This document shows positions 28,707 to 56,641 of a stretch of 64,000 bases of DNA, piece by piece. The DNA lies in NCBI GenBank assembly GCA_947488175.1, contig CANKYO010000014.1, positions 1 to 64,000 on the forward strand, read 5' to 3'. This DNA comes from an uncultured Paracoccaceae bacterium. GTDB taxonomy: Bacteria > Pseudomonadota > Alphaproteobacteria > Rhodobacterales > Rhodobacteraceae. The notes below the pieces were generated by a model that saw only the letters and a list, made by a program, of their open reading frames with translations, searched no databases and had not been told where the DNA came from. The first letter of the stretch is position 1. Each line of letters starts with the position of its first letter. Both the position numbers and the translations under genes were made by a program.

Positions 28707-28776
28707 CCCCACGCAATTGTGGCTGGCGTATGGGATCAGGTCACCTACATTGGCCAATAAAGCATGTGAGGGCCTG

Positions 28777-29787
28777 ATGGTTTCAATTCACCGACGCGGG
28801 TTTCTGGCCGGGGCAGGGGCCATTTGTGCAACGCCGCTGCTGGCGCAGGCAGATCCATGGGCTGTGGTCGCCGATCAGGCCCGCGCGCTGGAGCAATGCC
28901 ATGCGCTGATGATCCGGCAGGCCGGGCGCGATGTGCTGCGCGCGGTGTTTCGCGGGCCCGCATTTGGTCGGGCTGTACCGGTCAAATCAGTGTCCAAAAC
29001 CATTGTGGCCGCATTGACGGGGGCAGCGCTGGATCGCGGGGAAATCCCCTCCCTTGATGCCAGTATCGGGCAGGTGGCGCCGCGCCTGATACCAGCTGGG
29101 GCCGATGCCCGTGTGGCGGATATCACCATGGCGCATCTGGTGACGATGCAGGCCGGGCTGGAGCGGACATCAGGCGCCAATTACGGCGGCTGGGTAAGCA
29201 GTTCCAACTGGGTTTCCAATGCCTTAGCCCGTCCTTTTGTTGCCGCGCCGGGCAGCCGGATGCTGTATTCCACGGGCTCGTTTCATGTGCTGGGCGCGGT
29301 TCTTTCAGACGTATCGGGGCAAAGCCTGCTGACACTGGCGCGCCGCCGGCTGGGTGATCCGCTGGGTATCGATATTCCCGCCTGGACCCGCGATCCGCAA
29401 GGCCGGTATCTGGGCGGGAACGAGATGTCGCTGACCCATGAGGGCATGATCCGCTTTGGTGAGATGTACCGGCTGGGCGGCGCTTTTGGCGGTACGCAGG
29501 TGCTGAGCAGGGATTGGGTGGCGCGGTCATTGGAAATGCGGACACGCTCACCGTTCTCCGGGCTGAGCTATGGGTATGGCTGGTTTCTGGGGCAGTCCGG
29601 GGGCGAGGCTTACGCGCTGGCGCGTGGCTATGGCGGGCAGATCATCTGTGTTGTGCCGGGGCTGGAGATGACAATCGCGCTGACATCCGACCCGCTGCGC
29701 CCGGCACGCAGCGGCGGGTATTTCGGTGATATCATGCGGCTGATCGAAGGTGCGATTATCCCGACGGCGCGGGCGCAGATGGGCTGA
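28777..29787 (+). CDS. Serine hydrolase of the beta-lactamase / class C fold, exported
   Basis: A 336-aa protein with a twin-arginine-like leader (HRRGFLAGAGAICATPLLAQ). The catalytic tetrad SVSK (SxxK) is near residue 78, YST is in RMLYSTGSFHVLG near 165, and the third motif appears as GYGGQ near 292 in place of HxG or KTG. Such proteins include esterases, D-aminopeptidases and penicillin-binding homologues, so an antibiotic-resistance role should not be assumed. The chosen ATG follows GTGAGG; an upstream in-frame start at 28717 precedes the leader. Confidence 0.86.
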   Translation: MVSIHRRGFLAGAGAICATPLLAQADPWAVVADQARALEQCHALMIRQAGRDVLRAVFRGPAFGRAVPVKSVSKTIVAALTGAALDRGEIPSLDASIGQVAPRLIPAGADARVADITMAHLVTMQAGLERTSGANYGGWVSSSNWVSNALARPFVAAPGSRMLYSTGSFHVLGAVLSDVSGQSLLTLARRRLGDPLGIDIPAWTRDPQGRYLGGNEMSLTHEGMIRFGEMYRLGGAFGGTQVLSRDWVARSLEMRTRSPFSGLSYGYGWFLGQSGGEAYALARGYGGQIICVVPGLEMTIALTSDPLRPARSGGYFGDIMRLIEGAIIPTARAQMG

Positions 29788-29792
29788 CGCGC

Positions 29793-29811
29793 GGTGGGGT
29801 GAAACCCCACC
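29793..29811 (+). terminator. Hairpin after the serine-hydrolase gene
   Basis: A strong stem (GGTGGGGT / ACCCCACC) with a 3-nt loop is found 6 bp after the stop at 29787. It lacks a clear T run. Confidence 0.5.
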
Positions 29812-30353
29812 CTAGGCAACGGTCGGTGGTGTTGCGTGAGGGGGCACCGCGCGGCCCGCGCCGTATTCTGGCGAATCATCCGTTAATGCAGGGCCTTTGG
29901 CCGATTTCTGCGGTCGGCATCGCGTCGGCAAAACGTCGGACTTGCGTCGGACCTTTTGTGGCGCAGAGACAGGTTTAACGGTCAGTGCGGTGGAAGTGTG
30001 AACGCGGCGTTAAGGTTTTGGGGTGGTCTGTCTTGCGGACGAAGCGCCGAGTTGTGCAGGTGCGGCTAGTGCTTGCAAGGAGAAGAACTCATATGCGCAG
30101 ATCGCCGCAGTGGCATTGCAGCACATTCACCAAAACATTCATTCAAATGGGCTGATCCTGAACTAGCTTTTTGCTCGGGTCTACCACATACTTTCAGTTC
30201 GGGATCAACCGGATTTGTGTAGTCAAAGTCTTTCACGACGTAGAAAGCGTTCACTATCGCGAAAGGGTGGCTCCGCGATTGAACGTGCATACCCGAAGCT
30301 TCATTGGACCTTTTACTGTAAAGCGATTGCATCCCGTTTCATGATGACCAAAC
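29812..30353. other. 542-bp intergenic region holding a GTCGG repeat element
   Basis: The region separates two convergent genes. At 29913-29950 it carries four GTCGG boxes with exact 11-bp spacing, listed separately. No family was recognised in the open frames. A 20-codon frame at 30093-30155 on the plus strand is preceded by AAGGAG at 30077-30082, and a minus-strand frame at 30066-30332 has no ribosome site; neither is convincing as a gene. A small RNA downstream of the repeat element is possible. Confidence 0.4.
29913..29980. repeat. Intergenic element with four GTCGG boxes at 11-bp spacing, copy 1
   Basis: GTCGG occurs at 29913, 29924, 29935 and 29946, each exactly 11 bp after the last. 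About 22 bp after the fourth box is GGTTTAACG. A second copy with the same spacing and downstream GGTTAACG is at 45845-45911. Eleven-base direct repeats are the usual form of sites for PhoB/OmpR-type response regulators, which is the suggested role. Confidence 0.6.
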
Positions 30354-45844: not shown

Positions 45845-45911
45845 GTCGGACAAGCGTCGGACTTGTGTCGGCAAAACGCCGGACCCTAGGCGGCGTTGCA
45901 AAAGGTTAACG
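45845..45911. repeat. Intergenic element with GTCGG boxes at 11-bp spacing, copy 2
   Basis: GTCGG occurs at 45845, 45856 and 45867, with GCCGG at 45878, all at exact 11-bp spacing. GGTTAACG starts at 45904, about 22 bp after the last box. The element lies between the divergent HAD gene and the second malonyl-CoA synthetase and matches the copy at 29913-29980. An 8-bp inverted repeat (AAAAGGTT / AACCTTTT, 45900-45921) overlaps its right end. Confidence 0.6.
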
Positions 45912-56282: not shown

Positions 56283-56641
56283 TCCTGTTCCTCCCCAAAC
56301 AATCTGGACCATGTGTTACGCCCGCAAAATGACGCAGGCAACGCGAGAGGTGTGAAACGGGACAGAAAGAGTCAAAAAATTGACCAAGCGACAGAGCGGA
56401 TGGCGCAGGGAAGGCAGCACCCTTCGGCTTGCATCAGGGGTTCAGATCGGCCGGGGCGATGTCCTTGACCTCTGTTGTAGAATGTCAGATGACTTTGAAC
56501 TTCACCTCACCAACTGACCCAAAATGTGAAACCGGCAAAGCGAACCTTGGTTTAAACGCGGCGAAAGCGGACGGAAGAGCCCAGCCCTACTGGATGTCTG
56601 CGCCTTGTCGAATGGCCGGTTCTACCATTTAACTCTGCGAT
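56283..56641. other. 359-bp intergenic region between divergent prpE and the MFS gene
   Basis: It contains the short dyad GTCAA-AAAA-TTGAC at 56371-56384 and a segment at about 56570-56630 resembling a degenerate repeat also seen at 52640-52705. No gene was recognised. Confidence 0.35.

What the first reader, a model, noticed from the sequence alone, without database searches (positions are those of the whole stretch)
29913..29980. Four GTCGG boxes at exact 11-bp spacing between convergent genes (copy 1)
Boxes at 29913, 29924, 29935 and 29946 are followed about 22 bp later by GGTTTAACG. A second copy in the window has the same layout. An 11-bp direct-repeat spacing is typical of PhoB/OmpR-type regulator sites. 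This copy faces no annotated gene start, so it may drive an unannotated small RNA or peptide.
Basis: partly seen in the sequence, partly recalled or inferred. Interest (0 to 1): 0.6.

Follow-up and report, generated by a model that had tools for sequence, protein, structure and literature searches.

The report
Chromosome-wide arrays read by RHH protein
The four evenly spaced DNA boxes are one of about ninety similar clusters spread over this marine bacterium's chromosome, very probably docking sites for one small DNA-binding protein, and related bacteria keep clusters at some of the same places but with a different box word.

Summary
The tetrad at 29913-29950 is exact and is one of about 90 arrays (four GTCGG boxes, 11-bp period, almost all intergenic) in this Yoonia/Loktanella-like genome. 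In a same-genus genome 48 of 70 arrays examined sit beside orthologous genes; a few positions are shared across genera. Other genera have the same architecture with another box (GGCTG, GTATG, GTACA): the 11-bp period is kept and each genome uses mainly one box.

The likely reader is a solitary ribbon-helix-helix (RHH) protein of the Pfam BrnA family. It co-occurs with arrays (21 of 30 array genomes against 16 of 364 others). In 25 of 29 genomes with a known box, an array of that same box lies just upstream of its gene. One beta-strand residue varies with the base after the box.

Best reading: an autoregulated RHH protein that sits on dispersed centromere-like arrays and probably organises the chromosome, working like ParR/parC, CdbA and SegB. 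The OmpR/small-RNA reading is partly supported: tandem protein sites yes; OmpR regulator, promoter or small RNA, no evidence found. Binding and function are inferred, not tested.

The parts
29913..29950 (+). Array 1: four GTCGG boxes (29913, 29924, 29935, 29946), spacers CATCGC, CAAAAC, ACTTGC; proposed tandem site of the RHH protein
29816..29829 (+). GCAACGGTCGGTGG, left module of the extended (type I) element; function unknown
   Evidence: 39 genome-wide matches to GCAACGTTCGGTGG with up to 1 mismatch, control 3; by my comparison all 39 lie beside an array, 38 in its orientation, 1 opposite
29872..29886 (+). CGAATCATCCGTTAA, conserved left-flank motif of type I copies
   Evidence: position profile of 62 copies
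29951..30020 (+). Right flank of type I copy: ACC, GGTTTAACG at 29972, GTTAAGG at 30009
45845..45882 (+). Array 2: GTCGG x3 plus GCCGG, spacers ACAAGC, ACTTGT, CAAAAC; GGTTAACG at 45904. My pattern filed it as type I, by eye it looks like the short type
28717..29787 (+). Gene upstream of array 1 (reads as a beta-lactamase-like serine hydrolase, recalled); its orthologue in G294 is also followed by an array
   Evidence: ORF list; pair window-L193, 87% identity
30354..31154 (-). Convergent gene downstream of array 1 (reads as TonB-like, recalled)
   Evidence: ORF list; my crude gene finder missed it

Best explanation
The boxes are a tandem binding array (an iteron or centromere-like site) for a solitary, chromosomally encoded ribbon-helix-helix protein of the Pfam BrnA family: 131 aa in this genome, at G000:C2:561666-562058, outside the window. 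Probably one RHH dimer sits on each 5-bp box, 11 bp (about one helical turn) apart, so that four or five dimers line up on one face of the DNA. About 90 such arrays are spread over the chromosome, on average about 40 kb apart on the seven contigs measured, and one lies 70 bp upstream of the protein's own gene, which implies autoregulation. The most likely job is chromosome organisation (bending, bridging or marking many loci) rather than control of individual genes. SHOWN by sequence: the arrays, their conserved positions, the lineage-specific box, and the protein's co-occurrence, co-location and co-variation with the box. INFERRED: that the protein binds the boxes, one dimer per box, autoregulation, bridging or organisation.
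For: About 90 arrays in one genome, control 0. 48 orthologous array pairs between 91 G000 and 70 G294 arrays. Arrays at the same place across genera, for example 10-12 bp after gltD in G000, G294, G035 (GTCGG) and G349 (GGCTG). After gltD period 11 scores at least 10 in 20 of 79 species loci; no other period from 6 to 18 does in any. Other boxes genome-wide: GGCTG, GTATG and GTACA. RHH protein in 21 of 30 array genomes against 16 of 364 others (hand tally; Fisher 3e-18, relatedness not corrected). Upstream period-11 array scoring at least 12 in 31 of 64 homologues, 0 of 64 at each of six control periods. Same box upstream of the gene as in the rest of the genome in 25 of 29. Strand residue Y goes with T after GTCGG in 12 of 13, residues R/W/L/M with C, A or G in 10 of 10 (hand table; p 1e-5). 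All 26 aligned members match PF14384. Precedents: ParR of R1 needs two 11-bp repeats (PMC9426499, passages); CdbA and SegB.
Against: No binding, structure or phenotype data; the structure was not predicted and no PDB chain matches. Array genomes without a detected protein: G055, G080, G176, G180 and the weak case G239. Homologues also occur in 9 of 22 GTCGG-poor genomes at E 1e-5, 7 of them below 1e-15; in some of these no clear upstream array was seen (G009, G065, G070). Four of 29 lack the matching upstream array: G266, G286, G342, G366. Even spacing is significant in G000 but not in G269. Y/T association has an exception (G210), and G286, G326 and G116 were left out as mixed or other boxes. 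The conserved flanks of type I copies (GAATCAT, GTTAA) are not explained by an RHH array reader. The organising function is inferred from other proteins.
Confidence: 0.6

Rival explanations
1. Same RHH reader, but it is a global transcription regulator: arrays are operators of about 90 transcription units.
For: An array lies upstream of the RHH gene itself in most genomes examined; some arrays lie close upstream of genes, such as lpd in G000, G294, G119 and G180; positions are conserved with genes.
Against: No bias to promoter-side positions: 18 convergent, 9 divergent of 62 type I copies; no functional theme by eye; many arrays lie just after stop codons.
Confidence: 0.22
2. Another protein reads the arrays, and the RHH gene is merely one of its conserved neighbours.
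For: Other genes (gltD, lpd) also keep arrays across genera; G055, G080, G176 and G180 have arrays but no detected RHH protein.
Against: Presence of the RHH gene tracks arrays; the array is more constant at this gene (25 of 29) than at gltD (20 of 79), though the two samples were chosen differently; a strand residue varies with the box.
Confidence: 0.1
3. Arrays are old mobile repeats, or chromosomal decoys that titrate phage or plasmid replication initiators; the box follows the invaders of each lineage.
For: Phage replication-initiator genes contain 11-bp GTCGG arrays; array interiors evolve in concert within a genome; copy 1 resembles at least 17 non-orthologous G294 copies better than its orthologous one.
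Against: 48 of 70 G294 arrays sit at orthologous places, so most are old; no array-bearing initiator of a phage of this host family was found: the one host-like hit (L481) lies beside a host-type gene; the RHH protein links better to the arrays.
Confidence: 0.08

Closest known systems
CdbA of Myxococcus xanthus (PMC7156744; abstract and passages seen)
   Same: Small RHH protein, hundreds of sites along the chromosome, direct-repeat motif with the two binding regions one helical turn apart, little effect on transcription, nucleoid organisation and segregation.
   Different: Moderate specificity, a two-repeat motif, many sites inside genes, binds c-di-GMP. Here: few, near-perfect arrays of four or five boxes, almost all intergenic, box differs between genera; c-di-GMP not tested.
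SegB of Sulfolobales (PMC12284271; abstract and passages seen)
   Same: RHH protein with sites scattered over the chromosome and upstream of its own locus; bridges and loops DNA.
   Different: 13-bp palindrome, mostly intragenic, motif well conserved across genera, ParA-like partner SegA. Here: 11-bp direct repeats, intergenic, box changes, no such partner next to the gene in G000.
ParR/parC of plasmid R1 and relatives (PMC9426499; passages seen)
   Same: RHH protein on tandem direct repeats of 10-11 bp near its own operon; specificity differs between families.
   Different: One plasmid centromere with an actin-like ParM; here about 90 chromosomal arrays and a solitary gene.
BrnTA toxin-antitoxin, antitoxin BrnA (Pfam PF14384)
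   Same: The DNA-binding domain belongs to the BrnA family.
   Different: No BrnT-like motif in 30 loci (regular expression only); dispersed arrays.
TAACTGA intergenic repeats of Beggiatoaceae (PMC4679880; abstract and passages seen)
   Same: 169 sets of intergenic direct repeats, no functional theme of neighbours.
   Different: Heptamer repeats mostly just upstream of start codons, proposed translational role, reader unknown.
Intragenic origin iterons of phage replication initiators
   Same: GTCGG boxes at 11 bp, four or more.
   Different: Inside the initiator gene, different protein families (DnaD-like, O-like, DUF1376).

Membership tests
RHH nucleoid-associated / chromosome-organising protein (CdbA, SegB) | RHH DNA-binding domain | tested here: met
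   Sequence only: PF14384 in all 26 aligned members; that this family is RHH is recalled; no PDB match; fold not modelled
RHH nucleoid-associated / chromosome-organising protein (CdbA, SegB) | Many sites dispersed over the chromosome | tested here: met
   91 arrays extracted in G000; binding itself not tested
RHH nucleoid-associated / chromosome-organising protein (CdbA, SegB) | Loss disturbs nucleoid or segregation with little change in transcription | not testable with these tools
   needs a deletion strain
ParMRC partition system | RHH protein with tandem 10-11-bp direct repeats by its own gene | tested here: met
ParMRC partition system | Actin-like ParM gene in the operon | tested here: not met
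   Only the G000 locus: neighbours are GntR/FCD regulator, an unmatched RAYT-like frame and an ABC ATPase
BrnTA toxin-antitoxin system | BrnA domain | tested here: met
BrnTA toxin-antitoxin system | Adjacent BrnT toxin | tested here: not met
   No match of a BrnT-like pattern in 30 loci (a recalled motif, weak test); none among three G000 neighbours
OmpR/PhoB-type regulator sites | 11-bp direct repeats | tested here: met
OmpR/PhoB-type regulator sites | Sites placed at promoters of a regulon | tested here: not met
OmpR/PhoB-type regulator sites | Bound by a winged-helix response regulator | not tested
   no OmpR-family protein was examined
KOPS-like polarity sites | Orientation follows replication direction | tested here: not met
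   20 of 32 arrays in G035 (hand count; noisy skew)
Mobile repeats (MITE/REP) | Insertion polymorphism with empty sites | tested here: inconclusive
   48 of 91 G000 arrays have an orthologous G294 array; empty sites were not looked for

The most novel reading that the evidence does not exclude
A fast-evolving chromosome-organising system: a single RHH protein and its tens of dispersed arrays switch recognition word together between genera (GTCGG, GGCTG, GTATG, GTACA, perhaps GTGCA) while array positions stay put, and the spacers inside arrays are homogenised within each genome. It would be a bacterial counterpart of rapidly evolving centromere or hotspot recognition, possibly with an active mechanism that rewrites arrays.
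Probability: 0.3. Interest if true: 0.93.

Novelty: new variant of a known kind. Interest (0 to 1): 0.8.

Why it matters
Well-known dispersed chromosomal sites (parS, matS; recalled) and SegB sites (PMC12284271) keep their sequence across genera. Here positions and the 11-bp period are kept but the word changes, together with a likely DNA-contact residue of the presumed reader. That gives a natural series of matched protein/site pairs for asking how a specificity with tens of genomic sites can change, and points to a possible chromosome-organising protein in a large marine bacterial family that the libraries searched know only by a toxin-antitoxin domain name.

Tried and rejected
RNA element: RNAalifold on 62 copies, both strands, ungapped, gave no convincing fold; no Rfam match at gathering score. 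KOPS-like polarity: not found in G035. Strictly even spacing: G000 yes, G269 no. Regulon: no theme by eye. Arrays everywhere in the family: in 400-kb samples G175 showed one four-box array with another word and G093 no uniform set, with positive controls G035 and G269; G175 nevertheless has an RHH gene with GTCTG boxes upstream. Phage initiator as reader: the parallel is real but no link to this host family was found. Class-wide search: 17 of 385 genomes match, 3 of them of this family at E below 1e-42; the other 14 are partial matches at 1e-12 to 1e-15. Papers: ten searches listed nothing that I recognised as these arrays or this protein; most listed papers were seen as listing only, and the library lacks most subscription journals. 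Limits: gene predictions come from my crude codon-usage script, which missed at least one window gene; the split into two element types rests on one left-flank pattern; the reversed control is not independent, because it also matches GTATG.

Full report
WHAT IS THERE. The tetrad at 29913-29950 is exact. The three-box pattern occurs 177 times (overlaps included) in the host genome G000 and 0 times as reversed control. Ninety-one separate arrays were extracted. A left-flank pattern splits them into two types. Type I (62 copies, window copy 1 included) is an extended element of roughly 200 bp: a GCAACGTTCGGTGG-like module about 97 bp before box 1, CGAATCATnnGTTAA, AAAT..C, four boxes, ACCC, GTTAAnG..GCG.GCGG, GTTAAG. 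Type II (29) is the array with only short conserved edges. GCAACGTTCGGTGG with up to one mismatch occurs 39 times (control 3); compared by hand with the array lists, all 39 lie beside an array, 38 in its orientation. In 25 of the 35 type I copies whose upstream gene runs the same way, box 1 starts 86-106 bp after the stop codon (hand count).

PLACEMENT. Two of 91 arrays fall in predicted genes: one is probably a chance match (L127), the other lies in a frame that reads as valyl-tRNA synthetase to me (L080; not confirmed by a family search). Gene orientation around type I copies: convergent 18, tandem 15 and 14, divergent 9, one side unknown 6. Spacing is more even than random in G000 (80 arrays on seven contigs, CV 0.69 against 0.95, p 0.0008), not clearly so in G269 (69 arrays, p 0.085). 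In G035 all 78 matches lie on one 3.79-Mb contig of a 4.4-Mb genome, with up to five boxes. Orientation does not follow replication there (20 of 32 by hand).

CONSERVATION. The host is close to Yoonia: its GltD is 94% identical to that of Yoonia maricola. Against the same-genus genome G294, 48 orthologous array pairs were found between 91 and 70 arrays, window copy 1 among them (L193, neighbour gene 87% identical). Boxes are 97.5% identical between orthologues. Spacers are 57% identical between orthologues, 62% and 69% among paralogues within a genome, 53% between random cross-genome pairs. The flank at -40 to -12 behaves the ordinary way: 58% between orthologues, 37-39% otherwise. So array interiors look concerted while flanks keep a signal of orthology. 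Against a simple picture, copy 1 as a whole resembles at least 17 other G294 copies better than its orthologous one. Whether a changing reader or an active rewriting process drives this is open.

THE WORD CHANGES. Directly after gltD, 79 of 80 fetched loci could be read (L343 ends inside the gene). Period 11 gives scores of at least 10 in 20 loci; no other period from 6 to 18 does in any. By eye the boxes there include GTCGG, GTACA, GTATG, GTCTG and GTGCA. Genome-wide, G211, G349 and G377 carry GGCTG arrays; of 74 genomes searched G067, G105 and G049 carry GTATG arrays and G131 and G094 GTACA arrays, whereas the eight GTCGG-rich genomes in that call have 0 or 1 match. In 394 family genomes 52 have at least one GTCGG three-box match and 27 have four or more (hand count; one of these, G132, is a simple repeat and G239 is marginal).

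THE LIKELY READER. Comparing genes beside arrays showed a 131-aa protein with an array 69-85 bp upstream in G000, G294 and G269. It matches PF14384 BrnA_antitoxin (E 6e-13), as do all 26 members later aligned; that this domain is RHH is established knowledge. NCBIfam gives no match for it and no shared family among 26 members, PDB sequences none, PADLOC none for three members. With the three-sequence profile 37 of 394 genomes match at E 1e-12: 21 of the 30 genomes with arrays (27 GTCGG, 3 GGCTG) and 16 of the other 364 (Fisher 3e-18, no correction for relatedness). Several of the 16 carry arrays with other boxes upstream of the gene. With a 26-sequence profile on 42 chosen genomes, G349, G377, G266, G131, G049, G063, G140, G106 and (partly) G132 also match; G055, G080, G176, G180, G048, G276, G239 and G083 do not; 9 of 22 GTCGG-poor genomes match at E 1e-5, 7 of them below 1e-15. 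So the protein is commoner than GTCGG arrays, as expected if other boxes exist, and four clear array genomes lack it.

ARRAY BESIDE THE GENE. In 64 homologues, weak ones included, 31 have an upstream period-11 array scoring at least 12 and 45 at least 9; control periods 8, 10, 13, 14, 16 and 17 give 0 and at most 3. Where the genome's dispersed box is known, three boxes of the same word (at most one mismatch each, two in all) lie within 250 bp upstream in 25 of 29; the misses are G266, G286, G342 and G366. In the strand K-[VI]-[TS]-L-X-LD, X is Y in 13 genomes with GTCGG arrays, 12 of them with T after the box (G210 has C); 10 homologues with X = R, W, L or M have C, A or G (hand table; p 1e-5). 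G286 (mixed), G326 and G116 (other or mixed boxes) were left out. Related genomes are not independent.

MECHANISM. Shown: arrays, positions, word change, and the protein's linkage to them. Inferred: RHH dimers occupy successive boxes on one DNA face; the array before the gene gives autoregulation; dispersed arrays serve chromosome organisation. The inference leans on ParR of R1, which needs at least two 11-bp repeats (PMC9426499, passages), on CdbA, an RHH protein on direct repeats one helical turn apart that organises the nucleoid with little effect on transcription (PMC7156744, abstract and passages), and on SegB, with scattered sites and DNA looping (PMC12284271, abstract and passages). A global regulator remains the main rival.

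PHAGE PARALLEL. Many are plain tandem repeats, but a good part of those in open frames lie in replication-initiator-like genes; each of the ten that I chose for naming hits PHROG families annotated as replication initiation, DnaD-like helicase loader or primosomal proteins. They look like intragenic origin iterons. I found no such case in a phage of this host family: the one array with host-like spacers (L481) lies beside a gene that reads as acyl-CoA dehydrogenase. A decoy role therefore stays a rival.

Boxes and spacing are right, and a tandem protein site is right. OmpR family, promoter function and a small RNA are not supported.

Noticed in passing
IMG/VR loci such as L512, L454, L435, L491, L515: Phage replication-initiator genes carry GTCGG boxes at 11 bp inside the reading frame, in several unrelated initiator families: likely intragenic origin iterons.
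   Followed up: partly
IMG/VR loci L437, L469, L497, L519, L522, L530, L537: A GC-rich group of related contigs keeps a GTCGG tetrad with varied spacers shortly before what looks like a start codon; identity unknown.
   Followed up: no
L622:2266-2820 (G000), also L625 (G242) and L641 (G119): A frame with a RAYT-like HUH motif lies near the RHH gene in 3 of 30 loci scanned with a recalled pattern; Pfam gave no family for the G000 one.
   Followed up: partly
L080 (G000:C5, about 56435-56472): One array lies inside a long reading frame that reads as valyl-tRNA synthetase, coded through by the protein.
   Followed up: partly
G055, G080, G176, G180: Genomes with 9-29 GTCGG matches but no detected RHH protein: gene lost with arrays decaying, diverged, or missed (G180 is fragmented).
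   Followed up: no
window 29795-29812: A hairpin GGTGGGGTGAAACCCCACC follows the stop codon of the upstream gene; similar hairpins lie beside several arrays and look REP- or terminator-like.
   Followed up: no
L160, L181 (G211): Two GGCTG arrays are directly preceded by TTATCCACA, which looks like a DnaA box.
   Followed up: no
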